Source: Antedon mediterranea (lineage: Eukaryota > Echinodermata > Crinoidea > Comatulida > Antedonidae). Taken from it: DNA of 64,000 bases. Of the stretch, positions 2,451 to 60,433 are shown piece after piece. The stretch's first letter is position 1. Each line of letters begins with the position of its first letter. The position numbers and the translations under genes were made by a program. Location: assembly GCF_964355755.1 (NCBI RefSeq), contig NC_092680.1, forward strand, positions 15,167,001 through 15,231,000. Reading direction: 5' to 3'. Under the pieces are notes generated by a model. It did no database searches. It was not told where the DNA came from and saw only the letters and a list, made by a program, of their open reading frames with translations.

Positions 2451-2643
2451 TGTAATACTGGGGATACAGACAGCGCAATAACTTCGATTGATTCTGTTAA
2501 CAAGCAATTCGTAATTATGATTATGGCTATATACAAACACACCTTAAACACGAGTTGTCATTGCCAATGCGAAATATTATAATTGTCTCAACCAATAAGA
2601 AATATCCATTTCTGAACTATAACCTAAAAAAAGAACAACAAAA

Positions 2644-4972: not shown

Positions 4973-5122
4973 AACAACCACATAGGCCTACATACAGTAT
5001 ACAATAAAGATAAAAGTGTTTACAATATTAATAATTATGTGACTGAATGTTAGGGCGTTTGTTGAATGAGTGAATGTATCTAGTGGGTAAAAATCTGTGA
5101 TAATACCATATATGACTCTGTT

Positions 5123-5144
5123 GATATATATATATATATATATT
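5123..5144. repeat. (TA)n microsatellite
   Basis: A run of about eleven alternating TA dinucleotides in otherwise featureless DNA. Confidence 0.85.
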
Positions 5145-5344
5145 GCAATAGACCACGATGTCAAATGGAACGACAAAACTCGCAAAGACAAAGAAAACCA
5201 CTGGGAATTACTACTTAAAACCACAAAACCTTTTGGACTTAACATTAGGAACATACTTCCAGATTGGTAAAATTATTCCATTGACTACCAAAATTTAAGT
5301 TTCAATATTAACCACCATTTAAGCTGTTTTTTAGTCTCATTCCA

Positions 5345-16288: not shown

Positions 16289-16360
16289 TGAGTATTCGAA
16301 AGAGTTAAAGAGAAATAATTTATGGAAAATTCGAAGTATGTGTGAATTAAAAACACAAAT

Positions 16361-16432
16361 TAGAAGAGCGAGGTTTCGATCCTCGGACCTCTGGGTTATG
16401 GGCCCAGCACGCTTCCGCTGCGCCACTATGCT
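16361..16432 (-). tRNA. tRNA-iMet(CAT), first copy of the array, degenerate
   Basis: This leftmost gene keeps the CAT anticodon and the ATCGAAA T loop. Substitutions in both acceptor strands (AGCATAG against CTCTTCT) leave mismatches, so it is probably less functional than the interior copies. Confidence 0.85.
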
Positions 16433-17844
16433 GGATGATTAAAAGAAAGGGTTAAAGAGAAATAATTTACGGAAAATTCGAAATATACGTGTGAATTAAA
16501 AGCAAAACTTAGCAGAGCGAGGTTTCGATCCTCGGACCTTTGGGTTATGGGCCCAGCACGCTTTCGCTGCGCCACTCTGCTGGTTGAGTATTCGAAAGAG
16601 TTAAAGAGAAATAATTCATGGAAAATGCGAAATACGTGTGAATTAAAAACACAAATTAGCAGAGCGAGGTTTCGATCCTCGGACCTCTGGGTTATTGGCC
16701 CAGCACGCTTCCGCTGCGCCACTCTGCTGGATGAGTATAAGAAAGAGTTAAAGAGAAATAATTTATGGAAAATTCGAAGTATGTGTGAATTATAAACACA
16801 AATTAGCAGAGCGAGGTTTCGATCCTCGGACCTCTGGGTTATGGGCCCAGCACGCTTCCGCTGCGCCACTCTGCTGGTTGAGTATTAGAAAGAGTTAAAG
16901 AGAAATAATTTATGGAAAATTCGAAATACGTGTGAATTAAAAACACAAATTAGCAGAGCGAGGTTTCGATCCTCGGACCTCTGGGTTATGGGCCCAGCAC
17001 GCTTCCGCTGGGCCACTCTGCTGGATGATTATAAGAAAGGGTTAAAGAGAAATAATTTATGGAAAATTCGAAATATACGTGTGAATTAAAAATAAAACTT
17101 AGCAGAGCGAGGTTTCGATCCTCAGACCTCTGGGTTATGGGCCCAGCACGCTTCCGCTGCGCCACTCTGCTGGCTGAGAGTATAAGAAAGAGTTGAAGAG
17201 AAATAATTTATGGAAAATTCGAAGTACGTGTGAATTAAAAACACAAATTAGCAGAGCGAGGTTTCGATCCTTGGACCTCTGGGTTATGGGCCCAGCACGC
17301 TTCCGCTGCGCCACTCTGCTGGCTGAGTATTCGAAAGAGTTAAAGAGAAATAATTTATGGAAAATTCGAAATACGTGTGAATTAAAAACACAAATTAGCA
17401 GAGCGAGGTTTCGATCCTCGGACCTCTGGTGGGTTATGGGCCCAGCACGCTTCCGCTGCGCCACTCTGCTAGTGAGTATTCGAAAGAGTTAAAGAGAAAT
17501 AATTTATGGAAACTTCGAAATACGTGTGAATTAAAAACAAAATGTAGCAGAGAGCGAGGTTTCGATCCTCGGACCTCTGGGTTATGGGCCCAGCACGCTT
17601 CCGCTGCGCCACTCTGCTGGATGAGAGTATAAGAAAGAGTTAAAGAGAAATAATTTTTGGAAAATTCGAAGTACGTGTGAATTAAAAACACAAATTAGCA
17701 GAGCGAGGTTTCGATCCTCGGACCTCTGGGTTATGGGCCCAGCAGGCTTCCGCTGCGCCACTCTGCTGGATGAGTATAAGAAAGGGTTAAAGAGAAATAA
17801 TTTATGGAAAATTCGAAATATACGCGTGAATTAAAAACAAAACT

Positions 17845-17916
17845 TAGCAGAGCGAGGTTTCGATCCTCGGACCTCTGGGTTGTGGGCCCAGCAAGCTTCC
17901 GCTGCGCCACTCTGCT
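17845..17916 (-). tRNA. tRNA variant, anticodon CAC (from iMet)
   Basis: The anticodon loop reads CCCACAA, so U36 has become C and the anticodon is CAC (Val). Most copies of this type (17845, 18.6, 19.1, 20.6, 22.1, 22.5, 23.4 and 23.8 kb) also carry GCTTGC in place of GCGTGC. That breaks a D-stem pair and creates a HindIII site. Two further copies (26.65 and 30.74 kb) have the CAC anticodon with a different D-arm change. They are probably non-functional initiator derivatives. Confidence 0.85.
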
Positions 17917-18420
17917 GGTTGAGTATTCGAAAGAGTTAAAGAGAAATAATTTATGGAAAATTCGAAGTACGTGTGAATTAAAAACACAAATTAGCAGAGC
18001 GAGGTTTCGATCCTCGGACCTCTGGGTTATGGGCACAGCACGCTTCCGCTGCGCCACTCTGCTGGATGAGTATAAGAAAGAGTTAAAGAGAAATAATTTA
18101 TGGAAAATTCGAAGTACGCGTGAATTAAAAACACAAATTAGCAGAGTGAGGTTTCGATCCTCGGACCTCTGGGTTATGGGCCAAGCACGCTTCCGCTGCG
18201 CCACTCTGCTGGATGAGTATAAGAAAGAGTTAAAGAGAAATAATTTATGGAAAATTCGAAGTACGTGTGAATTAAAAACAGAAATTAGCAGAGCGAGGTT
18301 TCGATCCTCGGACCTCTGGGTTATGGGCCCAGCACGCTTCCGCTGCGCCACTCTGCTGGATGAGTATAAGAAAGAGTTAAAGAGAAATAATTTATGGAAA
18401 ATTCGAAGTACGTGTGAATT

Positions 18421-18425
18421 AAAAA
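18421..18425 (-). terminator. Pol III T-run terminator of the representative copy
   Basis: On the minus strand a run of five T lies 8-12 nt beyond the tRNA 3' end. Most units have TTTTT or two TTTT runs in this place. Units with the trailer TTTGTGTTTATAATTC lack a run of four here, and would depend on the TTTT about 35 nt downstream. Confidence 0.8.
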
Positions 18426-18432
18426 CACAAAT

Positions 18433-18504
18433 TAGCAGAGCGAGGTTTCGATCCTCGGACCTCTGGGTTATGGGCCCAGCACGCTTCCGCTGCGCCACTC
18501 TGCT
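18433..18504 (-). tRNA. tRNA-iMet(CAT), representative canonical copy
   Basis: The gene is 72 nt. It has acceptor AGCAGAG/CTCTGCT with A1:U72, and a D arm GCGC...GCGT containing the A box TGGCGCAGCGG. The anticodon arm is CTGGG-CCCATAA-CCCAG (C33, anticodon CAT, three G:C pairs), and the T arm is CGAGG-ATCGAAA-CCTCG. These are hallmarks of animal cytoplasmic initiator tRNA, which brings methionine to the start codon in the eIF2 ternary complex. It has no intron and no encoded CCA. Most units in the array carry this sequence or a one-base variant. Confidence 0.98.
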
Positions 18505-18532
18505 GGATGAGTATAAGAAAGAGTTAAAGAGA

Positions 18533-18544
18533 AATAATTTATGG
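18533..18544 (-). promoter_or_regulatory. conserved TATA-like box upstream of each tRNA gene
   Basis: CCATAAATTATT lies at about -40 to -29 relative to the tRNA 5' end and recurs in almost every spacer, with occasional CATGAATT changes. Its position fits upstream TATA-like elements that help TFIIIB placement at some tRNA genes in insects, plants and fission yeast. A role here is inferred; the spacer could also be conserved simply through homogenisation. Confidence 0.5.
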
Positions 18545-18968
18545 AAAATTCGAAGTACGTGTGAATTAAAAACACAAATTAGCAGAGCGAGGTTTCGATC
18601 CTCGGACCTCTGGGTTGTGGGCCCAGCAAGCTTCCGCTGCGCCACTCTGCTGGTTCAGTATTCGAAAGAGTTAAAGAGAAATAATTTATGGAAAATTCGA
18701 AGTACGTGTGAATTAAAAACACAAATTAGCAGAGCGAGGTTTCGATCCTCGGACCTCTGGGTTATGGGCCCAGCACGCTTCCGCTGCGCCACTCTGCTGG
18801 ATGAGTATAAGAAAGGATTAAAGAGAAATAATTTATGGAAAATTCGAAATATACGTGTGAATTAAAAGCAAAATTTAGCAGAGCGAGGTTTCGATCCACG
18901 GACCTCTGGGTTATGGGCCCAGCACGCTTCCGTTGCGCCACTTTGCTGGATGAGTATAAGAAAGGGTT

Positions 18969-19047
18969 AAGTTTATTCCATTCTGTAAGGGGCGGGTTTC
19001 CCGCTGTTGAATGAGTTTGAATAAAATAAATAAAATAAAATAAAATA
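18969..19047. mobile_element. short retroelement-like 3' end inserted in the tRNA array
   Basis: The normal spacer is interrupted by about 78 bp unrelated to the array: ccattctgtaaggggcgggt, then gaatgagtttgaat, then an (aaaat)n tail. A unique stretch ending in a short A-rich repeat is typical of a 5'-truncated SINE or LINE end. It is the only clear foreign insertion inside the array. Part of the spacer (gttaaagagaaat) was lost or altered at the junction. Confidence 0.55.
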
Positions 19048-20131
19048 AAGAGAATTTATGGAAAATTCGAAATATACGTGTGAATTAAAAACAAAACTTA
19101 GCAGAGCGAGGTTTCGATCCTCGGACCTCTGGGTTGTGGGCCCAGCAAGCTTCCGCTGCGCCACTCTGCTGGTTGAGTATTCGAAAGAGTTAAAGAGAAA
19201 TAATTTATGGAAAATTCGAAGTACGTGTGAATTAAAAACACAAATTAGCAGAGCGAGGTTTCGATCCTCGGACCTCTGGGTTATGGGCCCAGCACGCTTC
19301 CGCTGCGCCACTCTGCTGGATGAGTATAAGAAAGAGTTAAAGAGAAATAATTTATGGAAAATTCGAAGTACGTGTGAATTAAAAACACAAATTAGCAGAG
19401 CGAGGTTTCGATCCTCGGACCTCTGGGTTATGGGCCCAGCACGCTTCCGCTGCGCCACTCTGCTGGATGAGTATAAGAAAGAGTTAAAGAGAAATAATTT
19501 ATGGAAAATTCGAAGTACGTGTGAATTAAAAACACAAATTAGCAGAGCGAGGTTTCGATCCTCGGACCTCTGGGTTATGGGCCCAGCACGCTTCCGCTGC
19601 GCCACTCTGCTGGATGAGTATAAGAAAGAGTTAAAGAGAAATAATTTATTGAAAATTCGAAGTACGTGTGAATTAAAAACACAAATTAGCAGAGCGAGGT
19701 TTCGATTCTCGGACCTCTGGGTTATGGGCCCAGCACGCTTCCGCTGCGCCACTCTGCTGGATGAGTATTCGAAAGAGTTAAAGAGAAATAATTCATGGAA
19801 AATGCGAAATACGTGTGAATTAAAAATAAAATTTAGCAGAGGGCGAGGTTTCGATCCTCGGACCTCTGGGTTATGGGCCCAGCACGCTTTCAATGCTCCA
19901 TTCTGCTGGTTGAGTATTAGAAAGAGTTAAAGAGAAATAATTTATGGAAAATTCGAAGTACGTGTGAATTAAAAACACAAATTAGCAGAGCGAGGTTTCG
20001 ATCCTCGGACCTCTGGGTTATGGGCCCAGCACGTTTCCGCTGCGCCACTCTGCTGGATGAGTATAAGAAAGGATTAAAGAGAAATAATTTATGGAAAATT
20101 CGAAATATACGTGTGAATTAAAAATAAAATT

Positions 20132-20197
20132 TAGCAGAGGGCGAGGTTTCGATCCTCGGACCTCTGGGCCCACACGATTCCGCTGCGCCACTCTGCT
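20132..20197 (-). pseudogene. tRNA-iMet pseudogene lacking the anticodon loop
   Basis: The acceptor and T arm remain, but about six bases including the CAT are missing (ctctgggcccacacg on the plus strand). The same deletion recurs near 21.78, 23.11, 25.61 and 28.71 kb. Related forms with ctctggaccca lie near 24.44 and 25.18 kb. These units were carried along in the tandem duplications. Confidence 0.85.
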
Positions 20198-23100
20198 GGA
20201 TGAGAGTATAAGAAAGAGTTAAAGAGAAATAATTTTTGGAAAATTCGAAGTACGTGTGAATTAAAAACACAAATTATCAGAGCGAGGTTTCGATCCTCGG
20301 ACCTCTGGGTTATGGGCCCAGCACGCTTCCGCTGCGCCACTCTGCTGGATGAGTATAAGAAAGGGTTAAAGAGAAATAATTTTTGGAAAATTCGAAGTAC
20401 GTGTGAATTAAAAACACAAATTAGCAGAGCGAGGTTTCGATCCTCGGACCTCTGGGTTATGGGCCCAGCACGCTTCCGCTGCGCCACTCTGCTGGATGAG
20501 TATAAGAAAGGGTTAAAGAGAAATAATTTATGGAAAATTCGAAATATACGTGTGAATTAAAAACAAAACTTAGCAGAGCGAGGTTTCGATCCTCGGACCT
20601 CTGGGTTGTGGGCCCAGCAAGCTTCCGCTGCGCCACTCTGCTGGTTGAGTATTCGAAAGAGTTAAAGAGAAATAATTTATGGAAAATTCGAAGTACGTGT
20701 GAATTAAAAACACAAATTAGCAGAGCGAGGTTTCGATCCTCGGACCTCTGGGTTATGGGCCCAGCACGCTTCCGCTGCGCCACTCTGCTGGATGAGTATA
20801 AGAAAGGATTAAAGAGAAATAATTTATAGAAAATTCGAAATATACGTGTGAATTAAAAGCAAAATTTAGCAGAGCGAGGTTTAGATCCACGGACCTCTGG
20901 GTTATGGGCCCAGCCCGCTTCCGTTGCGCCACTTTGCTGGATGAGTATAAGAAAGGGTTAAAGAGAAATAATTTATGGAAAATTCGAAATATACGTGTGA
21001 ATTAAAAACAAAACTTAGCAGAGCGAGGTTTCGATCCTCGGACCTCTGGGTTATGGGCCCAGCACGCTTCCGCTGCGCCACTCTGCTGGATGAGTATAAG
21101 AAAGAGTTAAAGAGAAATAATTTATGGAAAATTCGAAGTACGTGTGAATTAAAAACACAAATTAGCAGAGCGAGGTTTCGATCCTCGGACCTCTGGGTTA
21201 TGGGCCCAGCACGCTTCCGCTGCGCCACTCTGCTGGATGAGTATAAGAAAGAGTTAAAGAGAAATAATTTATGGAAAATTCGAAGTACGTGTGAATTAAA
21301 AACACAAATTAGCAGAGCGAGGTTTCGATCCTCGGACCTCTGGGTTATGGGCCCAGCACGCTTCCGCTGCGCCACTCTGCTGGATGAGTATTCGAAAGAG
21401 TTAAAGAGAAATAATTCATGGAAAATGCGAAATACGTGTGAATTAAAAATAAAATTTAGCAGAGGGCGAGGTTTCGATCCTCGGACCTCTGGGTTATGGG
21501 CCCAGCACGCTTTCAATGCTCCATTCTGCTGGTTGAGTATTAGAAAGAGTTAAAGATAAATAATTTATGGAAAATTCGAAGTACGTGTGAATTAAAAACA
21601 CAAATTAGCAGAGCGAGGTTTCGATCCTCGGACCTCTGGGTTATGGGCCCAGCACGCTTCCGCTGCGCCACTCTGCTGGATGAGTATAAGAAAGGATTAA
21701 AGAGAAATAATTTATGGAAAATTCGAAATATACGTGTGAATTAAAAATAAAATTTAGCAGAGGGCGAGGTTTCGATCCTCGGACCTCTGGGCCCACACGA
21801 TTCCGCTGCGCCACTCTGCTGGATGAGAGTATAAGAAAGAGTTAAAGAGAAATAATTTTTGGAAAATTCGAAGTACGTGTGAATTAAAAACACAAATTAT
21901 CAGAGCGAGGTTTCGATCCTCGGACCTCTGGGTTATGGGCCCAGCACGCTTCCGCTGCGCCACTCTGCTGGATGAGTATAAGAAAGGGTTAAAGAGAAAT
22001 AATTTATGGAAAATTGGAAATATACGTGTGAATTAAAAACAAAACTTAGCAGAGCGAGGTTTCGATCCTCGGACCTCTGGGTTGTGGGCCCAGCAAGCTT
22101 CCGCTGCGCCACTCTGCTGGTTGAATATTCGAAAGAGTTAAAGAGAAATAATTTATGGAAAATTCGAAGTACGTGTGAATTAAAAACACAAATTAGCAGA
22201 GCGAGGTTTCGATCCTCGGACCTCTGGGTTATGGGCCCAGCACGCTTCCGCTGCGCCACTCTGCTGGATGAGTATAAGAAAGGATTAAAGAGAAATAATT
22301 TATGGAAAATTCGAAATATACGTGTGAATTAAAAGCAAAATTTAGCAGAGCGAGGTTTCGATCCACGGACCTCTGGGTTATGGGCCCAGCACGCTTCCGC
22401 TGCGCCACTTTGCTGGATGAGTATAAGAAAGGGTTAAAGAGAAATAATTTATGGAAAATTCAAAATATACGTGTGAATTAAAAACAAAACTTAGCAGAGC
22501 GAGGTTTCGATCCTCGGACCTCTGGGTTGTGGGCCCAGCAAGCTTCCGCTGCGCCACTCTGCTGGTTGAGTATTCGAAAGAGTTAAAGAGAAATAATTTA
22601 TGGAAAATTCGAAATACGTGTGAATTAAAAACACAAATTAGCAGAGCGAGGTTTCGATCCTCGGACCTCTGGGTTATGGGCCCAGCACGCTTCCGCTGCG
22701 CCACTCTGCTAGATGATTATAAGAAAGGGTTAAAGAGAAATAATTCATGGAAAATGCGAAATACGTGTGAATTAAAAATAAAATTTAGCAGAGGGCGAGG
22801 TTTCGATCCTCGGACCTCTGGGTTATGGGCCCAGCACGCTTTCAATGCTCCATTCTGCTGGTTGAGTATTAGAAAAAGTTAAAGAGAAATAATTCATGGA
22901 AAATGCGAAATACGTGTGAATTAAAAACACAAATTAGCAGAGCGAGGTTTCGATCCTCGGACCTCTGGGTTATGGGCCCAGCACGCTTCCGCTGCGCCAC
23001 TCTGCTGGATGAGTATAAGAAAGGATTAAAGAGAAATAATTTATGGAAAATTCGAAATATACGTGTGAATTAAAAATAAAATTTAGCAGAGGGCGAGGTT

Positions 23101-29100: not shown

Positions 29101-29265
29101 TGAATTAAAAGCAAAACTTAGCAGAGCGAGGTTTCGATCCTCGGACCTCTGGGTTATGGGCCCAGCACGCTTCCGCTGCGCCACTCTGCTGGTTGAGTAT
29201 TCGAAAGAGTTAAAGAGAAATAATTCATGGAAAATGCGAAATACGTGTGAATTAAAAACACAAAT

Positions 29266-29337
29266 TAGCAGAGCGAGGTTTCGATCCTCGGACCTCTGGG
29301 TTATTGGCCCAGCACGCTTCCGCTGCGCCACTCTGCT
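29266..29337 (-). tRNA. tRNA variant, anticodon AAT on an intact initiator body
   Basis: Only position 34 differs from the canonical gene (loop CCAATAA, anticodon AAT). All stems, C33, A1:U72 and the T loop are intact. Fourteen copies of this type occur, near 16.69, 27.10, 27.39, 29.30, 29.59, 31.19, 31.49, 31.93, 32.23, 33.67, 36.22, 38.63, 43.30 and 45.09 kb. If A34 were modified to inosine, the anticodon could read AUU, AUC and AUA. It might equally be an uncharged by-product. Confidence 0.88.
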
Positions 29338-30150
29338 GGATGAGTATAAGAAAGAGTTAAAGAGAAATAATTTATGGAAAATTCGAAGTATGTGTGAATT
29401 ATAAACACAAATTAGCAGAGCGAGGTTTCGATCCTCGGACCTCTGGGTTATGGGCCCAGCACGCTTCCGCTGCGCCACTCTGCTGGTTGAGTATTAGAAA
29501 GAGTTAAAGAGAAATAATTTATAGAAAATTCGAAATACGTGTGAATTAAAAACACAAATTAGCAGAGCGAGGTTTCGATCCTCGGACCTCTGGGTTATTG
29601 GCCCAGCACGCTTCCGCTGCGCCACTCTGCGGGTTGAGTATTCCAAAGAGTTAAAGAGAAATAATTTATGGAAAATTTGAAATACTTGTGAATTAAAAAC
29701 ACAAATTAGCAGAGCGAGGTTTCGATCCTCGGACCTCTGGGTTATGGGCCCAGCACGCTTCCGCTGCGCCACTCTGCTGGATGAGTATTAAAAAGAGTTA
29801 AAGAGAAATAATTTATGGAAAATTCGAAATACGTGTGAATTAAAAACACAAATTAACAGAGCGAGGTTTCGATCCTCGGACCTCTGGGTTATGGGAACAG
29901 CACGTTTCCGCTGCGCCACTCTGCTGGTTGAGTATTAGAAAGAGTTAAAGAGAAATAATTATTTATTGAAAATTCGAAATACGTGTGAATTAAAAACACA
30001 AATTAGCAGAGCGAGGTTTCGATCCTCGGACCTCTGGGTTATGGGCCCAGCACGCTTCCGCTGCGCCACTCTGCTGGTTGAGTATTAGAAAGAGTTAAAG
30101 AGAAATAATTTATGGAAAATTCGAAATACGTGTGAATTAAAAACACAAAT

Positions 30151-30184
30151 TAGCAGAGCGAGGCTTCCGCTGCGCCACTCTGCT
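30151..30184 (-). pseudogene. tRNA-iMet pseudogene, 34-bp remnant
   Basis: The middle of the gene, from the T loop to the D loop, is deleted. This leaves the acceptor strands and part of the D arm. An identical remnant lies exactly 2631 bp further at 32782-32815, so both derive from one event before the block was duplicated. Confidence 0.85.
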
Positions 30185-33100
30185 GGATGAGTATTAGAAA
30201 GAGTTAAAGAGAAATAATGTATTGAAAATTCGAAATACGTGTGAATTAAAAACACAAATTAGCAGAGCGAGGTTTCGATCCTCGGACCTCTGGGTTATGG
30301 GCCCAGCACGCTTTCGCTGCGCCACTCTGCTGGATGAGTATTAGAAAGAGTTAAAGAGAAATAATTTATGGAAAATTCGAAATATACGTGTGAATTAAAA
30401 GTAAAACTTAGCAGAGCGAGGTTTCGATCCTCGGACCTCTGGGTTATGGGCCCAGCACGCTTCCGCTGCGCCACTCTGCTGGATGAGTATAAGAAAGGGT
30501 TAAAGAGAAATAATTTATGGAAAATTCGAAATATATGTGTGAATTAAAAGGAAAACTTAGCAGAGCGAGGTTTCGATCCTCGGACCTCTGGGTTATGGGC
30601 CCAGCACGCTTCCGCTGCGCCACTCTGCTGGTTGAGTATTAGAAAGAGTTAAAGAGAAATAATTCATGGAAAATTCAAAATATACGTGTGAATTAAAAAC
30701 AAAACTTAGCAGAGCGAGGTTTCGATCCTCGATCGGACCTCTGGGTTGTGGGCCCAGCACGCCTCCGCTGCGCCACTCTGCTGGTTGAGTATTCGAAAGA
30801 GTTAAAGAGAAATAATTTATGGAAAATTCGAAATATACGTGTGAATTAAAAACAAAACTTAGCAGAGCGAGGTTTCGATCCTCGATCGGACCTCTGGGTT
30901 ATGGGCCCAGCACGCTTCCGCTGCGCCACTCTGCTGGATGATTAAAAGAAAGGGTTAAAGAGAAATAATTTACGGAAAATTTGAAATATACGTGTGAATT
31001 AAAAGCAAAACTTAGCAGAGCGAGGTTTCGATCCTCGGACCTCTGGGTTATGGGCCCAGCACGCTTCCGCTGCGCCACTCCGCTGGTTGAGTATTCGAAA
31101 GAGTTAAAGAGAAATAATTCATGGAAAATGCGAAATACGTGTGAATTAAAAACACAAATTAGCAGAGCGAGGTTTCGATCCTCGGACCTCTGGGTTATTG
31201 GCCCAGCACGCTTCCGCTGCGCCACTCTGCTGGATGAGTATAAGAAAGAGTTAAAGAGAAATAATTTATGGAAAATTCGAAGTATGTGTGAATTATAAAC
31301 ACAAATTAGCAGAGCGAGGTTTCGATCCTCGGACCTCTGGGTTATGGGCCCAGCACGCTTCCGCTGCGCCACTCTGCTGGTTGAGTATTAGAAAGAGTTA
31401 AAGAGAAATAATTTATGGAAAATTCGAAATACGTGTGAATTAAAAACACAAATTAGCAGAGCGAGGTTTCGATCCTCGGACCTCTGGGTTATTGGCCCAG
31501 CACGCTTCCGCTGCGCCACTCTGCTGGTTGAGTATTCTAAAGAGTTAAAGAGAAACAATTTATGGGAAATTCGAAATACGTGTGAATTAAAAACACAAAT
31601 TAGCAGAGCGAGGTCTCGATCCTCGGACTTCTGGGTTATGGGTCCAGCACGCTTCCGCTGCGCCACTCTGCTGGATGAGTATCAGAAAGGGTTAAAGAGA
31701 AATAATTTATGGACAATTCGAAATATACGTGTGAATTAAAAGCAAAACTTAGCAGAGCGAGGTTTCGATCCTCGGACCTCTGGGTTATGGGCCCAGCACG
31801 CTTCCGCTGCGCCACTCTGCTGGTTGAGTATTCGAAAGAGTTAAAGAGAAATAATTCATGGAAAATGCGAAATACGTGTGAATTAAAAACACAAATTAGC
31901 AGAGCGAGGTTCCGATCCTCGGACCTCTGGGTTATTGGCCCAGCACGCTTCCGCTGCGCCACTCTGCTGGATGAGTATAAGAAAGAGTTAAAGAGAAATA
32001 ATTTATGGAAAATTCGAAGTATGTGTGAATTATAAACACAAATTAGCAGAGCGAGGTTTCGATCCTCGGACCTCTGGGTTATGGGCCCAGCACGCTTCCG
32101 CTGCGCCACTCTGCTGGTTGAGTATTAGAAAGAGTTAAAGAGAAATAATTTATAGAAAATTCGAAATACGTGTGAATTAAAAACACAAATTAGCAGAGCG
32201 AGGTTTCGATCCTCGGACCTCTGGGTTATTGGCCCAGCACGCTTCCGCTGCGCCACTCTGCGGGTTGAGTAATCCAAAGAGTTAAAGAGAAATAATTTAT
32301 GGAAAATTTGAAATACTTGTGAATTAAAAACACAAATTAGCAGAGCGAGGTTTCGATCCTCGGACCTCTGGGTTATGGGCCCAGCACGCTTCCGCTGCGC
32401 CACTCTGCTGGATGAGTATTAAAAAGAGTTAAAGAGAAATAATTTATGGAAAATTCGAAATACGTGTGAATTAAAAACACAAATTAACAGAGCGAGGTTT
32501 CGATCCTCGGACCTCTGGGTTATGGGACCAGCACGTTTCCGCTGCGCCACTCTGCTGGTTGAGTATTAGAAAGAGTTAAAGAGAAATAATTATTTATTGA
32601 AAATTCGAAATACGTGTGAATTAAAAACACAAATTAGCAGAGCGAGGTTTCGATCCTCGGACCTCTGGGTTATGGGCCCAGCACGCTTCCGCTGCGCCAC
32701 TCTGCTGGTTGAGTATTAGAAAGAGTTAAAGAGAAATAATTTATGGAAAATTCGAAATACGTGTGAATTAAAAACACAAATTAGCAGAGCGAGGCTTCCG
32801 CTGCGCCACTCTGCTGGATGAGTATTAGAAAGAGTTAAAGAGAAATAATGTATTGAAAATTCGAAATACGTGTGAATTAAAAACACAAATTAGCAGAGCG
32901 AGGTTTCGATCCTCGGACCTCTGGGTTTTGGGCCCAGCACGCTTTCGCTGCGCCACTCTGCTGGATGAGTATTAGAAAGAGTTAAAGAGAAATAATTTAT
33001 GGAAAATTCGAAATATACGTGTGAATTAAAAGTAAAACTTAGCAGAGCGAGGTTTCGATCCTCGGACCTCTGGGTTATGGGCCCAGCACGCTTCCGCTGC

Positions 33101-36100
33101 GCCACTCTGCTGGATGAGTATAAGAAAGGGTTAAAGAGAAATAATTTATGGAAAATTCGAAATATATGTGTGAATTAAAAGGAAAACTTAGCAGAGCGAG
33201 GTTTCGATCCTCGGACCTCTGGGTTATGGGCCCAGCACGCTTCCGCTGCGCCACTCTGCTGGTTGAGTATTCGAAAGAGTTAAAGAGAAATAATTTATGG
33301 AAAATTCGAAATATACGTGTGAATTAAAAACAAAACTTAGCAGAGCGAGGTTTCGATCCTCGATCGGACCTCTGGGTTATGGGCCCAGCACGCTTCCGCT
33401 GCGCCACTCTGCTGGATGATTAAAAGAAAGGGTTAAAGAGAAATAATTTACGGAAAATTCGAAATATACGTGTGAATTAAAAGCAAAACTTAGCAGAGCG
33501 AGGTTTCGATCCTCGGACCTCTGGGTTATGGGCCCAGCACGCTTCCGCTGCGCCACTCTGCTGGTTAAGTATTCGAAAGAGTTAAAGAGAAATAATTCAT
33601 GGAAAATGCGAAATACGTGTGAATTAAAAACACAAATTAGCAGAGCGAGGTTCCGATCCTCGGACCTCTGGGTTATTGGCCCAGCACGCTTCCGCTGCGC
33701 CACTCTGCTGGATGAGTATAAGAAAGAGTTAAAGAGAAATAATTTATGGAAAATTCGAAGTATGTGTGAATTATAAAAACAAATTAGCAGAGTGAGGTTT
33801 CGATCCTCGGACCTCTGGGTTATGGGCCCAGCACGCTTCCGCTGCGCCACTCTGCTGGTTGAGTATTAGAAAGAGTTAAAGAGAAATAATTTATGGAAAA
33901 TTCGAAATACGTGTGAATTAAAAACACAAATTAGCAGAGCGAGGTTTCGATCCTCGGACCTCTGGGTCATGGGCCCAGCACGCTTCCGCTGCGCCACTCT
34001 GCTGGTTGAGTATTAGAAAGAGTTAAAGAGAAATAATTTATGGAAAATTCGAAATACGTGTGAATTAAAAACACAAATTAGCAGAGAGCGAGGTTTCGAT
34101 CCTCGGACCTCTGGGTTATGGGCCCAGCACGCTTCCGCTGCGCCACTCTGCTGGTTGAGTATTAGAAAGAGTTAAAGAGAAATAATTTATGGAAAATTCG
34201 AAATACGTGTGAATTAAAAACACAAATTAGCAGAGCGAGGTTTCGATCCTCGGACCTCTGGGTTATGGGCCCAGCACGCTTCCGCTGCGCCACTCTGCTG
34301 GATGAGTATTAGAAAGAGTTAAAGAGAAATAATTTATGGAAAATTCGAAATACGTGTGAATTAAAAACACAAATTAGCAGAGAGCGAGATTTCGATCCTC
34401 GGACCTCTGGGTTATGGGCCCAGCACGCTTCCGCTGCGTCACTCTGCTGGTTGAGTATTATAAGTAAGAGTTAAAGGGAAATAATTTATGGAAAATTCGA
34501 AATACGTGTGAATTAAAAACACGTGAATTAAAAACACAAATTAGCAGAGCGAGGTTTCGATCCTCGGACCTCTGGGTTATGGGTCCAGCACGCTTCCGCT
34601 GCGCCACTCTGCTGGTTGAGTATTAGAAAGAGTTAAAGAGAAATAATTTATGGAAAATTCGAAATACGTGTGAATTAAAAACACAAATTAGCAGAGCGAG
34701 GTTTCGATCCTCGGACCTCTGGGTTATGGGCCTAGCACGCTTCCGCTGCGCCACTCTGCTGGATGAGTATTAGAAAGAGTTAAAGAGAAATAATTTATGG
34801 AAAATGCGAAATACGTGTTAATTAAAAACAAAAATTAGCAGAGCGAGGTTTCGATCCTCGGACCTCTGGGTTATGGGCCCAGCACGCTTCCGCTGCGCCA
34901 CTCTGCTGGATGAGTATTAGAAAGGGTTAAAGAGAAATAATTCATGGAAAATGCGAAATACGTGTGAATTAAAAACACAAATTAGCAGAGAGGGAGGTTT
35001 CGATCCTCGGACCTCTGGGTTATGGGCCCAGCACGCTTCCGCTGCGCCACTCTGCTGGTTGAGTATTTTAGAAAGAGTTAAAGAGAAATAATTTATGGAA
35101 AATTCGAAATACGTGTGAATTAAAAACACAAATTAGCAGAGAGCGAGGTTTCGATCCTCGGACCTCTAGGTTATGGGCCCAGCACGCTTCTGCTGCGCCA
35201 CTCTGCTGGTTGAGTATTTTAGAAAGAGTTAAAGAGAAATAATTTATGGAATATTCGAAATACGTGTGAATTAAAAACACAAATTAGCAGAGCGAGGTTT
35301 CGATCCTCGGACCTCTGGGTTATGGGCCCAGCACGCTTCCGCTGCGCCACTCTGCTGGATGAGTATAAGAAAGAGTTAAAGAGAAATAATTTATGGAAAA
35401 TTCGAAGTATGTGTGAATTATAAACACAAATTAGCAGAGCGAGGTTTCGATCCTCGGACCTCTGGGTTATGGGCCCAGCACGCTTCTGCTGCGCCACTCT
35501 GCTGGTTGAGTATTAGAAAGAGTTAAAGAGAAATAATTTATGGAAAATTCGAAATACGTGTGAATTAAAAACACAAATTAGCAGAGCGAGGTTTCGATCC
35601 TCGGACCTCTGGGTCATGGGCCCAGCACGCTTCCGCTGCGCCACTCTGCTGGTTGAGTATTAGAAAGAGTTAAAGAGAAATAATTTATGGAAAATTCGAA
35701 ATACGTGTGAATTAAAAACACAAATTAGCAGAGAGCGAGGTTTCGATCCTCGGACCTCTGGGTTATGGGCCCAGCACGCTTCCGCTGCGCCACTCTGCTG
35801 GTTGAGTATTAGAAAGAGTTAAAGAGAAATAATTTATGGAAAATTCGAAATACGTGTGAATTAAAAACACAAATTAGCAGAGCGAGGTTTCGATCCTCGG
35901 ACCTCTGGGTTATGGGCCCAGCACGCTTCCGCTGCGCCACTCTGCTGGATGAGTATTAGAAAGAGTTAAAGAGAAATAATTTATGGAAAATTCGAAATAC
36001 GTGTGAATTAAAAACACAAATTAGCAGAGAGCGAGGTTTCGATCCTCGGACCTCTGGGTTATGGGCCCAGCACGCTTCCGCTGCGTCACTCTGCTGGTTG

Positions 36101-42100: not shown

Positions 42101-45100
42101 CAGCACGCTTCCGCTGCGCCACTCTGCTGGTTGAGTATTTTAGAAAGAGTTAAAGAGAAATAATTTATGGAAAATTCGAAATACGTGTGAATTAAAAACA
42201 CAAATTAGCAGAGAGCGAGGTTTCGATCCTCGGACCTCTAGGTTATGGGCCCAGCACGCTTCTGCTGCGCGACTCTGCTGGTTGAGTATTTTAGAAGGAG
42301 TTAAAGAGAAATAATTTATGGAAAATTCGAAATACGTGTGAATTAAAAACACAAATTAGCAGAGCGAGGTTTCGATCTTCGGACCTCTGGGTTATGGGCC
42401 CAGCACGCTTCCGCTGCGCCACTCTGCTGGATGAGTATAAGAAAGAGTTAAAGAGAAATAATTTATGGAAAATTCGAAGTATGTGTGAATTATAAACACA
42501 AATTAGCAGAGCGAGGTTTCGATCCTCGGACCTCTGGGTTATGGGCCCAGCACGCTTCCGCTGCGCCACTCTGCTGGTTGAGTATTAGAAAGAGTTAAAG
42601 AGAAATAATTTATGGAAAATTCGAAATACGTGTGAATTAAAAACACAAATTAGCAGAGCGAGGTTTCGATCCTCGGACCTCTGGGTCATGGGCCCAGCAC
42701 GCTTCCGCTGCGCCACTCTGCTGGTTGAGTATTAGAAAGAGTTAAAGAGAAATAATTTATGGAAAATTCGAAATACGTGTGAATTAAAAACACAAATTAG
42801 CAGAGAGCGAGGTTTCGATCCTCGGACCTCTGGGTTATGGGCCCAGCACGCTTCCGCTGCGCCACTCTGCTGGTTGAGTATTAGAAAGAGTTAAAGAGAA
42901 ATAATTTATGGAAAATTCGAAATACGTGTGAATTAAAAACACAAATTAGCAGAGCGAGGTTTCGATCCTCGGACCTCTGGGTTATGGGCCCAGCACGCTT
43001 CCGCTGCGCCACTCTGCTGGATGAGTATTAGAAAGAGTTAAAGAGAAATAATTTATGGAAAATTCGAAATACGTGTGAATTAAAAACACAAATTAGCAGA
43101 GAGCCAGGTTTCGATCCTCGGACCTCTGGGTTATGGGCCCAGCACGCTTCCGCTGCGTCACTCTGCTGGTTGAGTATTATAAGAAAGAGTTAAAGAGAAA
43201 TAATTTATGGAAAATTCGAAATACGTGTGAATTAAAAACACGTGAATTAAAAACACAAATTAGCAGAGCGAGGTTTCGATCCTCGGACCTCTGGGTTATT
43301 GGCCCAGCACGCTTCCGCTGCGCCACTCTGCTGGATGAGTATAAGAAAGAGTTAAAGAGAAATAATTTATGGAAAATTCGAAGTATGTGTGAATTATAAA
43401 CACAAATTAGCAGAGCGAGGTTTCGATCCTCGGACCTCTGGGTTATGGGCCCAGCACGCTTCCGCTGCGCCACTCTGCTGGTTGAGTATTAGAAAGAGTT
43501 AAAGAGAAATAATTTATGGAAAATTCAAAATACGTGTGAATTAAAAACACAAATTAGCAGAGCGAGGTTTCGATCCTCGGACCTCTGGGTCATGGGCCCA
43601 GCACGCTTCCGCTGCGCCACTCTGCTGGTTGAGTATTAGAAAGAGTTAAAGAGAAATAATTTATTGAAAATTCGAAATACGTGTGAATTAAAAACACAAA
43701 TTAGCAGAGCGAGGTTTCGATCCTCGGACCTCTGGGTTATGGGCCCAGCACGCTTCCGCTGCGCCACTCTGCTGGTTGAGTATTAGAAAGAGTTAAAGAG
43801 AAATAATTTATGGAAAATTCGAAATACGTGTGAATTAAAAACACAAATTAGCAGAGCGAGGTTTCGATCCTCGGACCTCTGGGTTATGGGCCCAGCACGC
43901 TTCCGCTGCGCCACTCTGCTGGTTGAGTATTTTAGAAAGAGTTAAAGAGAAATAATTTATGGAAAATTCGAAATACGTGTGAATTAAAAACACAAATTAG
44001 CAGAGAGCGAGGTTTCGATCCTCGGACCTCTAGGTTATGGGCCCAGCACGCTTCTGCTGCGCGACTCTGCTGGTTGAGTATTTTAGAAGGAGTTAAAGAG
44101 AAATAATTTATGGAAAATTCGAAATACGTGTGAATTAAAAACACAAGTTAGCAGAGCGAGGTTTCGATTCTCGGACCTCTGGGTTATGGGCCCAGCACGC
44201 TTCCGCTGCGCCACTCTGCTGGATGAGTATAAGAAAGAGTTAAAGAGAAATAATTTATGGAAAATTCGAAGTATGTGTGAATTATAAACACAAATTAGCA
44301 GAGCGAGGTTTCGATCCTCGGACCTCTGGGTTATGGGCCCAGCACGCTTCCGCTGCGCCACTCTGCTGGTTGAGTATTAGAAAGAGTTAAAGAGAAATAA
44401 TTTATGGAAAATTCGAAATACGTGTGAATTAAAAACACAAATTAGCAGAGCGAGGTTTCGATCCTCGGACCTCTGGGTCATGGGCCCAGCACGCTTCCGC
44501 TGCGCCACTCTGCTGGTTGAGTATTAGAAAGAGTTAAAGAGAAATAATTTATGGAAAATTCGAAATACGTGTGAATTAAAAACACAAATTAGCAGAGAGC
44601 GAGGTATCGATCCTCGGACCTCTGGGTTATGGGCCCAGCACGCTTCCGCTGCGCCACTCTGCTGGTTGAGTATTAGAAAGAGTTAAAGAGAAATAATTTA
44701 TGGAAAATTCGAAATACGTGTGAATTAAAAACACAAATTAGCAGAGCGAGGTTTCGATCCTCGGACCTCTGGGTTATGGGCCCAGCACGCTTCCGCTGCG
44801 CCACTCTGCTGGATGAGTATTAGAAAGAGTTAAAGAGAAATAATTTATGGAAAATTCGAAATACGTGTGAATTAAAAACACAAATTAGCAGAGAGCGAGG
44901 TTTCGATCCTCGGACCTCTGGGTTATGGGCCCAGCACGCTTCCGCTGCGTCACTCTGCTGGTTGAGTATTATAAGAAAGAGTTAAAGAGAAATAATTTAT
45001 GGAAAATTCGAAATACGTGTGAATTAAAAACACGTGAATTAAAAACACAAATTAGCAGAGCGAGGTTTCGATCCTCGGACCTCTGGGTTATTGGCCCAGC

Positions 45101-46543
45101 ACGCTTCCGCTGCGCCACTCTGCTGGATGAGTATAAGAAAGAGTTAAAGAGAAATAATTTATGGAAAATTCGAAGTATGTGTGAATTATAAACACAAATT
45201 AGCAGAGCGAGGTTTCGATCCTCGGACCTCTGGGTTATGGGCCCAGCACGCTTCCGCTGCGCCACTCTGCTGGTTGAGTATTAGAAAGAGTTAAAGAGAA
45301 ATAATTTATGGAAAATTCGAAATACGTGTGAATTAAAAACACAAATTAGCAGAGCGAGGTTTCGATCCTTGGACCTCTGGGTCATGGGCCCAGCACGCTT
45401 CCGCTGCGCCACTCTGCTGGTTGAGTATTAGAAAGAGTTAAAGAGAAATAATTTATTGAAAATTCGAAATACGTGTGAATTAAAAACACAAATTAGCAGA
45501 GCGAGGTTTCGATCCTCGGACCTCTGGGTTATGGGCCCAGCACGCTTCCGCTGCGCCACTCTGCTGGTTGAGTATTAGAAAGAGTTAAAGAGAAATAATT
45601 TATGGAAAATTCGAAATACGTGTGAATTAAAAACACAAATTAGCAGAGAGCGAGGTTTCGATCCTCGGACCTCTGGGTTATGGGCCCAGCACGTTTCCGC
45701 TGCGCCACTCTGCTGGTTGAGTATTATAAGAAAGAGTTAAAGAGAAATAATTTATGGAAAATTCGAAATACGTGTGAATTAAAAACACGTGAATTAAAAA
45801 CACAAATTAGCAGAGCGAGGTTTCGATCCTCGGACCTCTTGGTTATGGGTCCAGTACGCTTCCGCTGCGCCACTCTGCTGGTTGAGTATTCCAAAGAGTT
45901 AAAGAGAAATAATTTATTGAATTTCGAAATACGTGTGAATTAAAAACACAAATTAGGAGAGCGAGGTTTCGGTCCTCGGACCTCTCGGTTATGGGCCCAG
46001 CACGCTTCCACTGCGCCACTCTGCTGGTTGAGTATTAGAAAGAGTTAACGACAAATAATTTATGGAAAATTCGAAATACGTGTGAATTAAAAACACAAAT
46101 TAGCAGAGCGAGGTTTCGATCCTCGGACTTCTGGGTTATGGGCCCAGTACGCTTCCGCTGCGCCACTCTGCTGGTTGAGTATAAGAAAGAGTTAAAGAGG
46201 AATAATTTATGGAAAATTCGAAATATACATGTGAATTAAAAGCAAAACTTAGCAGAGCGAGGTTTCGATCCTCGGACTTCTGGGTTATGGGCCCAGCACG
46301 CTTCCGCTGCGCCACTCTGCTGGTTGAGTATTAGAAAGAGTTAAAGTGGAATAATTTATGAAAAATTCGAAATACGTGTGAATTAAAAACACAAATTAGG
46401 AGAGCGAGGTTTCGATCCTCGGACCTCTGGGTTATGGGCCCAGCACGCTTCCGCTGCGCCACTCTGCTGGATGAGTATTAGAAAGAGTTAAAGAGAAATA
46501 ATTTTTTGAAAATGCGAAATACGTGTGAATTAAAAACACAAAT

Positions 46544-46615
46544 TAGCAGAGCGAGTTCTCGATCCTCGGACCTGTGGGTTATGAGCCCAGCACGCTTCCG
46601 CTGCGCCACTCTGCT
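46544..46615 (-). tRNA. tRNA-iMet(CAT) variant with U33
   Basis: The loop is CTCATAA, so the initiator-type C33 is replaced by the U33 found in ordinary tRNAs. An outer anticodon-stem change (CCCAC) weakens one pair. Similar copies lie near 47.17 and 47.76 kb, all at the right edge of the array. A related form is at 41.19 kb. Confidence 0.8.
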
Positions 46616-47812
46616 GGTTGAGTATTAGAAAGAGTTAAAGAGAAATAATTTATGGAAAATTCGAAATACGTGTGAATTAAAAACACAAATTAGCAGAGCG
46701 AGGTTTCGATCCTCGGACCTCTGGGTTATGGGCCCAGCACGCTTCCGCTGCGCCACTCTGCTGGATGAGTATTCCAAAGAGTTAAAGAGAAATAATTTAT
46801 GGAAAATTCGAAACACGTGTGAATTAAAAACACAAATTAGGAGAGCGAGGTTTCGATCCTCGGACCTCTGGGTTATGGGCCCAGCACGCTTCCGCTGCGC
46901 CACTCTGCTGGTTGAGTATTAGAAAGAGTTAAAGTGGAATAATTTATGGAAAATTCGAAATACGTGTGAATTAAAAACACAAATTAGGAGAGCGAGGTTT
47001 CGATCCTCGGACCTCTGGGTTATGGGCCCATCACGCTTCCGCTGCGCCACTCTGCTGGATGAGTATTAGAAAGAGTTAAAGAGAAATAATTTATTGAAAA
47101 TGCGAAATACGTGTGAATTAAAAACACAAATTAGCAGAGCGAGTTTTCGATCCTCGGACCTGTGGGTTATGAGCCCAGCACGCTTCCGCTGCGCCACTCT
47201 GCTGGTTGAGTATTAGAAAGAGTTAAAGAGAAATAATTTATGGAAAATTCGAAATACGTGTGAATTAAAAACACTAATTAGCAGAGCGAGGTTTCGATCC
47301 TCGGACCTCTGGGTTATGGGCCCAGCACGCTTCCGCTGCGCCACTCTGCTGGATGAGTATTCCAAAGAGTTAAAGAGAAATAATTCATGGAAAATTCGAA
47401 ACACGTGTGAATTAGAAACACAAATTAGGAGAGCGAGGTTTCGATCCTCGGACCTCTGGGTTATGGGCCCAGCACGCTTCCGCTGCGCCACTCTGCTGGT
47501 TGAGTATTAGAAAGAGTTAAAGTGGAATAATTTATGGAAAATTCGAAATACGTGTGAATTAAAAACACACATTAGGAGAGCGAGGTTTCGATCCTCGGAC
47601 CTCTGGGTTATGGGCCCAGCACGCTTCCGCTGCGCCACTCTGCTGGTTGAGTATAAGAAAGAGTTAAAGAGGAATAATTTATGGAAAATTCGAAATATAC
47701 GTGTGAATTAAAAGCAAAACTTAGCAGAGCGAGGTTTCGATCCTCGGACCTGTGGGTTATGAGCCCAGCACGCTTCCGCTGCGCCACTCTGCTGGTTGAG
47801 TATAAGAAAGAG

Positions 47813-50595
47813 TTTTTTTTTCTCTTTTGTGATTAACCACCACCTTTATTCATTCAATATTTCATACATATTTCGTTGACATTTAATTTTCATACATTAA
47901 ATTTCCGTTTTCTACTTTTTTCGTTATTTTCTTATTTTTACTCTTTTAACCTTTATACATATAGTGTTTTGATTATATGCATACACAAACCTTAAAAACC
48001 TACACTTCATTTTGTACATGATATAATACTGTACATTTTAAAATACAAATATGGATGCCACTTATAAGTTACAACATGCCTAGTGTATTCATATCTTTTA
48101 TAATATATTTAAACTGAATCCAAGGATTCCGGCATACAGGTTTTTGAAGTTCAGTTTTAATTTTAATTATGTATATTACGTACACAGCTATTGAATACAA
48201 TTGATTTTTTAAATTGACATTTACTTCCTAACAGGAGTTCTTTGAACGAGCTACTGCCGTTATCTAGCTTTTTAAATATATTGTCATTTTTTTCCACAGT
48301 ACTGTATTTGATTACGTCTACAATAATAAAACATATGTTTTTCGTCTTCAATGACTCCACAATTGTTACATATGTTATTATTTTTCAGTTTCCAGTTATA
48401 CAGTTTTAGATTTGTAGGTACAATTCTATTTAGTAATCTATAATTCAATTGGGCAAATTTCTTAATTTTTTCGTTTTTCACTTTTCTTTTCCAGACATCA
48501 CACCAATTTGATATCTTCATTAAATATGTTATTCCATTTAAGTATGCTTTTCGGAGGAATAAAAACATTATTAACAAAGTTAGAATAAACATCTTTTGTT
48601 GTCATCTTAATTATATTGTTGATATTGTATTCTAGATTCACATTCATATATTGGTTCATATTTGGCATATTATGTTTAATTATACTTAACCACTCTTTTG
48701 GAATAGCTCTAGTTAAAGAAACATATTCAGCTATCCAGTTTTTCTTAGTACGAAGTTGTTTAATTATTTCTATAGGTTTCATTAGACGATTGAAAATAAT
48801 TATATCTCCAATTTGATTAAAACCTGCATCTATCCAGTTCTTAAAGAATAGTGGTTTGTTTCTATATTTAATAAAATTATTACCCCATAGGTTTTGCTTT
48901 ATCACTTCTTCATACTTGTTAATTGTACCTTCAGTATTCATATTATTAAATTCAACAACACTTTAGAACATTATAATAAAAAGATGATATATCATCTAAG
49001 CCCATGTTATTTTTAAAATTGATATTTGACATACTTAAAATTAGTTGTTTGGTTCCAAATTTGTTAAAATAGAATAGTGGTAAGATTTTCCATCTTACGT
49101 GTTTTCTACACAGTAATTTTCTTGCCCATATCATTTTCAGAGAGTTTATGTGTAATGCGAAATCAGGCATACATATGCCCCCTTTAATCATTTTACCGAT
49201 TAAAGTTTTTTTCTTTATTTTTTCAGTTTTTCCATTCCATAAAAAGTTATATATCAATTTATTTATTTTAAAAATAACATCATCTGGTACATCAATTATA
49301 CATGCATTGTATGTTAGTTTAGACAAAGCTAAACTTTTTAAAATGGTAACATTGCCAAAAAAGGTTAGGTTTCTTCCTTTCCATGTATTGAGTAGCATTT
49401 CTAAGTTTGCCACCTTACTATTCCAATTTAATTCACTGCATTTGTTCTCATTATATCCCACATAAATACCCAAAATCTTAATTGGTTCATTAACCCAATT
49501 TAGACTGCATGGTTTTTCAATTTTGTTTATATTTTTGCCAATCCATATAGCGTTGTTTTTTTTATTATTTAAATTCATACCAGACACTTTACCAAACTTA
49601 TTAACAATGTTTAAACCAATCTCTATACTTTTTTCATTTCCAACAAAGAGTACAGTGTCATCTGCCAGATGCGCAATGCGAACTTCCTCACCATTATCAT
49701 TGTTAGGTAAAGATATTCCTTTATAGCATTTATCTTTTCTTATATTACACGCCATAATTTCTACTACTAAAATAAAGAGTAACGCCGACAATGGGCAACC
49801 CTATCTTATTCCGCATTCCATTTCCAAACTTTCTGATATCCAACCATTATTAACAATAACACATTCAGTTTCACTATAAATTGTATTTACCCATTTTAAA
49901 AAGGAGTCTCCAAAATTAAATTTTTTTAGTACCTTAAACATAAAATCTCTATTTACAGAATCAAAGGCTTTTCTAAAATCAAGGGATAGAATAGCTCCTT
50001 CGATTTGTTCTTCTGTTGTATAATACAGAATATCATTAATTAGACGGACGTTTTCTCCAGCGAATCGTCCCTTTTGGTCGTTGTCAACTACATTTCCAAT
50101 TACTTTATGAAGTCTCATACATAGAATTTGAGTTAAAATTGTGTAGTCTGTATTTAATAAAGTGATAGGACGCCAGTTTTCAAGCAATTTTTTATCACCT
50201 TTTTTTGTATAATAGGCTTATAATACCACGTTTCTGTGTTGAACTCATTTCATTGTTAAAATAACATGCATTTAGAGCGTCACAAACAATGTGTTTAATG
50301 TCATCCCAGAAATGTAAATAAAACTCAACGGTCAAGCCATCACATCCGGGAGTTTTATTTAATTTCATTTTTTTAATTGCATTGGTACATTCATTTAGTG
50401 TGACAATACCTTCACATATCCCCTTTTCTTCTTCAGTTAAACTCGTTACATTTGATTTATCTAAGTAAGTGTTTTTTTTTAACGGGATATACCCTTATTT
50501 GCATATAGATGCCTATAAAATCTAAAATCTTCATGGGCTCCCGGATTATATCTTTGGTTTTCATAAAGTTTTAGAAAACTCTACTCTCTTGGTGG
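47813..50595 (-). pseudogene. 5'-truncated L1/Tx1-like non-LTR retrotransposon (LINE), decayed
   Basis: Reading leftwards, fragments encode the end of a linker region (KLYENQRYNPG, about 50575). Then come reverse transcriptase blocks KTPGCDGLT (about 50345), ENWRPITLLN (50180), SLDFRKAFDSVN (50000), GCPLSALLFIL (49790) and HLADDTVLF (49660), with LADD at the catalytic site. A C-terminal CNNCGVIEDEKHMFYYC zinc-binding motif (C-x2-C-x7-H-x4-C) lies near 48350. The copy is dead: an in-frame TAG replaces the usual Gln before GCPLS, and frameshifts lie near 50200, 48955, 48560 and 50490. The endonuclease domain is absent. The 3' end is a T-run on the plus strand (47813-47821), the poly(A) tail, sitting 19 bp upstream of the last tRNA gene. 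No target duplication was found at the other end. The clade is inferred from motif style. Confidence 0.92.

Positions 50596-50714: not shown

Positions 50715-60433
<9,719 letters not shown>

What the first reader, a model, noticed from the sequence alone, without database searches (positions are those of the whole stretch)
16289..47813. Giant single-type tandem array of about 210 initiator tRNA-Met genes
A run of roughly 31.5 kb consists of nothing but a 147-150 bp unit, each with one 72-nt initiator tRNA-Met gene on the same strand. Tandem tRNA clusters are known in animals, but this dosage of the one tRNA that sets translation initiation is striking. It is organised like 5S rDNA. Retained stems, promoter boxes and T-run terminators in most copies suggest that many units can be transcribed.
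Basis: partly seen in the sequence, partly recalled or inferred. Interest (0 to 1): 0.88.

Follow-up and report, generated by a model that had tools for sequence, protein, structure and literature searches.

The report
Giant array of start-tRNA genes
A chromosome of an unnamed eukaryote carries about two hundred head-to-tail copies of the tRNA that starts protein synthesis, but many other tRNAs of the same genome are stacked in the same way, so the array is one example of a known kind of organisation, notable mainly because the ordinary methionine tRNA seems to have only two genes.

Summary
The array is real. A 72-nt initiator-type tRNA-Met consensus has 212 hits in the window, all on the minus strand within 16361-47793, mostly 147 or 149 bp apart. 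Not all are good genes: 63 of 212 equal the consensus, 48 carry indels and 72 pass a strict test of stems, invariant residues and CAT anticodon. Anticodon variants AAT (14), CAC (10) and CAA (1) occur.

The window's own genome (354 Mb, 18 contigs) shows that arrays of other tRNAs are common: Lys-TTT (229 hits in one run), Cys (124), Lys-CTT, Ser, Phe, Gly, Gln and, by similarity, Val, Thr and Arg. What sets the initiator apart is that only 2 elongator-Met genes were found against 250 initiator copies, and that tRNA diversity is 0.38 of spacer diversity, against 0.90-0.98 in the Lys-TTT, Cys and Ser-GCT arrays.

Best reading: a 5S-like tandem array grown by block duplication, whose consensus is protected at array level while single copies decay. 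Use in egg or embryo is plausible but untested.

The parts
16289..47813 (-). Tandem array of 212 initiator tRNA-Met units, about 147 bp each
16804..16875 (-). Example of a consensus-identical initiator tRNA-Met copy (one of 63)
16657..16728 (-). Example of an initiator-bodied copy with anticodon AAT (one of 14)
17845..17916 (-). Example of a copy with anticodon CAC (one of 10)
32891..32962 (-). The single copy with anticodon CAA
19020..19049 (.). AATAA microsatellite inside the only 223-bp unit
30163..30184 (-). Stub copy, 22 nt matched; the same break recurs at 32794
32794..32815 (-). Second stub copy with the same break
34508..34537 (.). First of ten 15-bp spacer duplications that mark the 165-bp units
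47722..47793 (-). Outermost copy at the 5' side of the tRNA sense; about 20 bp of unit flank follow, then unrelated sequence

Best explanation
A genuine initiator tRNA-Met tandem array organised like 5S rDNA: one Pol III gene with internal A and B boxes and a T-run terminator per unit. Shown: it is made of repeated blocks of units, and it is one of many tRNA arrays in this genome. Inferred: it grew by unequal exchange or similar block duplication. Inferred: selection protects the consensus of the array as a whole, since variants that spread widely are nearly all in the spacer, while single copies are free to break. Inferred: a subset (72 strictly intact copies plus an unknown share of mildly altered ones) supplies initiator tRNA, far more genes than steady demand needs, so copy number reflects recombination and perhaps a burst demand in oocyte or early embryo.
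For: Anatomy. Boxes in 170 of 212, terminators in 210 of 212. Blocks: identical units recur at lags of 9 units (units 18-56) and 16 units (units 118-195), and odd units recur in register. Constraint: tRNA over spacer diversity 0.38 (site bootstrap 0.25-0.60) here and 0.35 (0.24-0.50) in a second initiator array on C1, against 0.90 (0.57-1.40) Lys-TTT, 0.98 (0.68-1.46) Cys, 0.96 (0.55-1.60) Ser-GCT. Alleles in more than 10 units: 1 in tRNA, 17 in spacer, Fisher p 0.0002, a guide only because sites are linked. C1 and C11 consensuses agree at 72 of 72 tRNA positions and differ by 5 substitutions and 6 gap columns in the spacer. [quoted passage not shown]
Against: Rare alleles are as dense in tRNA as in spacer (60 over 72 sites against 64 over 75, alleles in up to 5 units), and 6 of 26 distinct single mutants are intact against 9.8 expected at random, p 0.16: no filter on individual copies is seen. 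Broken types have spread: 34 copies share a 2-nt insertion, AAT and A36G single mutants are in 10 and 8 copies. Bootstrap ranges of the constrained and drifting arrays touch (0.60 against 0.57 for Lys-TTT). No transcript data.
Confidence: 0.6

Rival explanations
1. Gene-dosage adaptation: selection for more initiator tRNA drove the amplification, and most copies are used.
For: Most copies keep both boxes (170 of 212) and a terminator (210 of 212); the tRNA part is less diverse than the spacer; initiator tRNA is described as rate limiting for growth in a commentary (passage of PMC11500080).
Against: 140 of 212 copies fail the strict test; other tRNAs are amplified as much; elongator Met, needed at many more codons (recalled), has two genes; single mutants show no filter.
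Confidence: 0.15
2. Tandem satellite by accident: recombination amplifies tRNA units anywhere in this genome, the array is silent or nearly so, and the few dispersed initiator genes (C2, C8) do the work.
For: Arrays of several tRNA types, some with tRNA as diverse as spacer (Lys-TTT, Cys, Ser-GCT); defects spread by block duplication; perfect dispersed copies exist on C8 and C2; an Arabidopsis Ser/Tyr tRNA array is silent in most tissues (passages of PMC12308677).
Against: The initiator arrays on C11 and C1 keep an identical tRNA consensus and a low tRNA to spacer diversity ratio.
Confidence: 0.2
3. Chromatin or boundary role: the Pol III factor binding sites matter and the tRNA product does not.
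For: A human tRNA tandem repeat binds CTCF and is proposed as a boundary (passages of PMC4041453); boxes are kept in 170 of 212.
Against: Common variants avoid the whole tRNA and not only the boxes; no boundary data.
Confidence: 0.04
4. Assembly artefact that inflates a short array.
For: Reads were not available to me; the array is longer than many long reads.
Against: 137 distinct units among 212, with several kinds of higher-order block; a second, differently diverged array on another contig.
Confidence: 0.04

Closest known systems
[quoted passage not shown] original paper not read)
   Same: tRNA genes in tandem, transcribed by Pol III; initiator tRNA gene used as reporter there
   Different: Xenopus units hold several tRNA genes (recalled); here one gene per 147-bp unit and no expression data
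Entamoeba tRNA gene arrays (PMC2652664, abstract read)
   Same: Many tRNA types in tandem arrays across one genome
   Different: Entamoeba units hold up to 5 tRNA genes and arrays exceed 10% of the genome; here mostly one gene per unit, and this array is 0.009% of the genome
Large tRNA clusters of Nematostella, zebrafish and stickleback (PMC2888827, passages read)
   Same: Clusters of fifty and more members; 65-89% of tRNA genes clustered in these species
   Different: Neighbours are mostly of different type in Nematostella and zebrafish; no initiator array of this size in the passages read
Human 1q23.3 tRNA tandem repeat (PMC4041453, passages read)
   Same: Tandem repeat carrying tRNA genes, variable copy number
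   Different: 7.3-kb units, 9-43 per allele, with CTCF binding
Arabidopsis Ser/Tyr tRNA cluster (PMC12308677, passages read)
   Same: Tandem tRNA array with intact and broken copies
   Different: Mixed types; silent in most tissues, active in root tip
Tandem 5S rDNA (recalled)
   Same: One Pol III gene per short unit, head to tail, homogenised
   Different: The gene is an initiator tRNA

Membership tests
Eukaryotic initiator tRNA-Met | CAT anticodon, A-U first pair, three G-C pairs beside the anticodon loop, A in place of T in the T loop (features recalled) | tested here: met
   Consensus has all of them; 63 of 212 copies identical, 72 of 212 strictly intact; the elongator-Met gene of this genome differs
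Eukaryotic initiator tRNA-Met | Starts translation in the cell | not testable with these tools
   No RNA or protein assay
Pol III type 2 gene | A box TRGYnnAnnnG and B box GWTCRANNC (consensus recalled) | tested here: met
   A box in 190, B box in 191, both in 170 of 212
Pol III type 2 gene | T-run terminator shortly after the gene | tested here: met
   T run of 4 or more within 40 nt in 210 of 212
5S-like tandem gene array | Head-to-tail one-gene units on one strand, more alike within than between arrays | tested here: met
   212 of 212 on one strand; mean unit identity 0.935; 131 of 131 distinct window units in one clade apart from 24 C1 units, support 0.93
Entamoeba-type array | Units with several tRNA genes | tested here: not met
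   One gene per unit in this array; a two-gene Glu/Tyr unit exists elsewhere in the genome
Oocyte-type tRNA array | Active in oocyte or embryo, silent in soma | not testable with these tools
   No expression data

The most novel reading that the evidence does not exclude
A dedicated germline or early-embryo bank of initiator tRNA, the counterpart of oocyte 5S arrays, in a genome that stores many tRNA types in arrays but keeps elongator methionine at two genes: 92 strictly intact initiator genes of 250 copies found against 2, about 46 to 1. A bolder extension that the data do not exclude: the spread anticodon variants (AAT, CAC, CAA), which would pair with near-cognate start codons, are made and allow some non-AUG initiation.
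Probability: 0.2. Interest if true: 0.8.

Novelty: new member of a known kind. Interest (0 to 1): 0.55.

Why it matters
This genome offers a natural experiment: tRNA arrays of comparable make, some with a constrained tRNA part (iMet, Ser-AGA, Gln, Phe) and some drifting (Lys-TTT, Cys, Ser-GCT), let one ask when tandem tRNA copy number is selected and when it is a by-product of recombination. The contrast of initiator (250 copies found) with elongator Met (2) breaks the expectation that tRNA gene number tracks demand, and the variants in the array are built-in barcodes for testing stage-specific expression.

Tried and rejected
Rejected: the initiator alone is amplified. Rejected: the 147-bp unit reflects nucleosome length, since other arrays have units of 137, 138, 146, 166, 174, 176, 177-183 and 220 bp. 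Weakened: bulk demand. Not decisive: the single-mutant test, 6 of 26 intact against 9.8 expected, p 0.16. Not decisive: CpG decay as a sign of germline methylation. In the tRNA part CpG transitions are no more frequent than others (0.0088 against 0.0123, 208 units) and array CpG o/e is 1.16 against 0.64 in the flanks, but over the whole unit CpG transitions are in excess (0.036 against 0.013), the drifting Lys-TTT array shows no excess either, and Ser-AGA and Cys do; I draw nothing from it. The minimum-energy fold of the bare tRNA was not a cloverleaf; not counted either way, as modifications and tertiary contacts are left out. A fuzzy regular-expression scan timed out.

Counts mended on review: my first indel count (18 of 212) was a proxy for more than 8 mismatches; alignment gives 48 of 212. 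A first count of 82 intact copies did not ask for CAT; 72 does. One search reports 73 of 208 identical because it skips insertion columns; 63 of 212 is right. Best-explanation confidence lowered from 0.62 to 0.60 because the CpG argument was withdrawn.

Genome counts are lower bounds, since only part of the candidates are scored: 9 of 11, 63 of 35763, 34 of 94, 24 of 73, 37 of 389, 37 of 38, 3 of 4; searches also list only part of their matches. The species stays unknown: the COX1 family search did not complete; the frequent TAGGCCTA motif made me think of an echinoderm-like animal, from recall only. The search for dispersed copies of the spacer did not complete.

No paper listed in my ten searches (open-access library, at most 20 rows seen each) has a title or shown abstract that names an initiator-only array of this size.
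Full report
What is there. The window has a 31.5-kb run, 16289-47813, of a unit of about 147 bp. The 72-nt consensus has 212 hits, all on the minus strand and all in this run; TRF sees the same array. Unit length is 147 bp in 106 and 149 bp in 66 of 212, with 137 distinct units. ARAGORN genes; Rfam has 197 tRNA hits above its gathering score, of which 150 were shown.

What it encodes. The consensus has the CAT anticodon with C before it, an A-U first pair, three G-C pairs beside the anticodon loop and A in the first T-loop position, which I recall as marks of the animal initiator; the elongator-Met gene of this genome is quite different. By alignment, 63 of 212 copies equal the consensus, 164 have no indel and 48 do, 34 of them a 2-nt insertion; the anticodon is CAT in 178, AAT in 14, CAC in 10, CAA in 1 and lost in 9. 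72 of 212 pass a strict test of all stems, 21 set positions and CAT. A and B boxes both match in 170 of 212, and a T run of at least four follows within 40 nt in 210 of 212. Many units could be transcribed, but about two thirds have at least one flaw by this rule, which is structural and not a test of function.

How it grew. Identical units recur at set distances, best at 9 units in one part and 16 in another, and odd units recur in register: two stubs with the same break (30163, 32794) and ten 165-bp units. I infer unequal exchange or a like process. A second array of 33 hits lies on C1 with a related spacer. In a tree of 155 distinct units (units with 25 or more gaps dropped), 131 of 131 window units form one clade, support 0.93; the next two nodes add 3 and 8 of the 24 C1 units, support 0.74 and 0.76. 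Spacer diversity is 0.20 in C1 and 0.08 here (every fourth window unit used). I infer that the window array is the younger.

Is it constrained. tRNA diversity is 0.38 of spacer diversity (site bootstrap 0.25-0.60; 208 of 212 units used) and 0.35 in the C1 array (29 of 34). With the same script: Ser-AGA 0.31, Gln 0.37, Phe 0.43, Lys-CTT 0.52 (ranges below 1), and Lys-TTT 0.90, Cys 0.98, Ser-GCT 0.96, Gly 0.78 (ranges including 1); for Ser-AGA, Gln, Phe, Gly and Ser-GCT only a sampled stretch of the array was used, 18 to 27 units. Alleles in more than 10 units number 1 in the tRNA and 17 in the spacer. Against this, rare alleles are equally dense in both parts and distinct single mutants are intact no more often than random ones, 6 of 26 against 9.8. 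The two fit together if selection acts on the bulk of the array and not on each copy. Linked sites make the p-value a guide only. CpG statistics gave no consistent answer.

The rest of the genome. The window is C11:15167001-15231000 of a genome of 354 Mb in 18 contigs. Lys-TTT lies at C8:23635020-23675180 in 176-bp units (229 hits in the run), Cys at C2:14174780-14191626 in 137-bp units (124 hits), Lys-CTT at C3:8097906-8102039 in 146-bp units (33 hits). ARAGORN on sampled stretches shows arrays of Ser-GCT (24 of 24 calls), Ser-AGA (37 of 41), Phe (24 of 25), Gly (17 of 17), Gln with two anticodons (22 of 22) and one two-gene Glu/Tyr array in 422-bp units (16 and 14 of 30). By similarity to recalled human-like tRNAs only: Val C10:15256417-15279692 and Thr C4:34616334-34623270, Arg C7:22274255-22282124, a mixed His and Trp cluster from C1:11501537, and smaller Asn and Asp groups. 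Ala, Ile, Leu and Pro turned up in few places in the lists shown. Searches score only part of their candidates, so absence is not shown. The dedicated elongator-Met search scored 3 of 4 candidates: two perfect genes and one 82% hit. Initiator copies found: 212 here, 33 and 1 on C1, 3 on C2, 1 on C8, 250 in all; 72, 17, 0, 2 and 1 pass the strict test, 92 of 250.

What it means. In this genome arrays are common, so an array as such needs no initiator-specific cause. Yet both initiator arrays look constrained while the larger Lys-TTT array drifts, and elongator Met, which I recall is needed at many more codons, has two genes. Copy number thus does not track demand. My best reading is a recombination-driven 5S-like array whose consensus is kept because some of its output matters, perhaps in egg and embryo. 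[quoted passage not shown] the Cell paper itself was not read). An Arabidopsis array shows the other option, silence in most tissues (passages of PMC12308677).

Known relatives. Tandem tRNA arrays are known: Entamoeba (abstract of PMC2652664); clusters of fifty and more in Nematostella and teleosts (passages of PMC2888827); a human tandem repeat whose authors call homogeneous tRNA tandem repeats uncommon outside Entamoeba (passages of PMC4041453); plant clusters of up to 110 genes and 1-34 iMet copies per plant species (passages of PMC12652284). A sea cucumber survey counts 90 Met genes; the words cluster and tandem do not occur in its main text (find in PMC8580430). None of the passages I read describes an initiator-only array of this size. 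I call it a new member of a known kind in an unusual setting.

Limits. No expression, no reads, no species name. The copy number rests on an assembly I cannot check; 137 distinct units among 212 argue against simple assembly stutter.

Noticed in passing
window 11273-11490 and 12613-13373: Minisatellites that are reverse complements of each other (GGACAACTACCCC and GGGGTAGTTGTCC) lie on either side of a 22-bp repeat array at 11607-11917; perhaps the ends of one mobile element.
   Followed up: no
window 53539-54824: A 105-bp satellite, 12 copies, 96% match.
   Followed up: no
window 48952-50217, minus strand: Pieces of a reverse transcriptase (Pfam RVT_1 in two adjoining ORFs) about 1 kb beyond the far end of the array.
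   Followed up: partly
window 55703-56158, plus strand: ISXO2-like (IS1595) DDE transposase domain, E 1.5e-20.
   Followed up: partly
window 1512-2543, minus strand: Rhodopsin-family 7-TM receptor, E 8.5e-23.
   Followed up: partly
window 9904-10224 and 14884-15231, plus strand: Two exon-like ORFs that look to me like a SUGP1-type splicing factor (recalled; no Pfam hit), ending about 1 kb before the array.
   Followed up: partly
L031 (G000:C10:14320000-14326999): A two-gene array: Glu on the minus and Tyr on the plus strand in a 422-bp unit.
   Followed up: partly
L010 (G000:C2:9924500-9933500), 3482-5189: Three initiator tRNA copies about 770-870 bp apart with a shared upstream stretch that differs from the array spacer.
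   Followed up: partly
window array, e.g. 16657-16728 (AAT), 17845-17916 (CAC), 32891-32962 (CAA): Initiator-bodied copies whose anticodons would match near-cognate start codons; AAT and CAC types recur in many units.
   Followed up: partly
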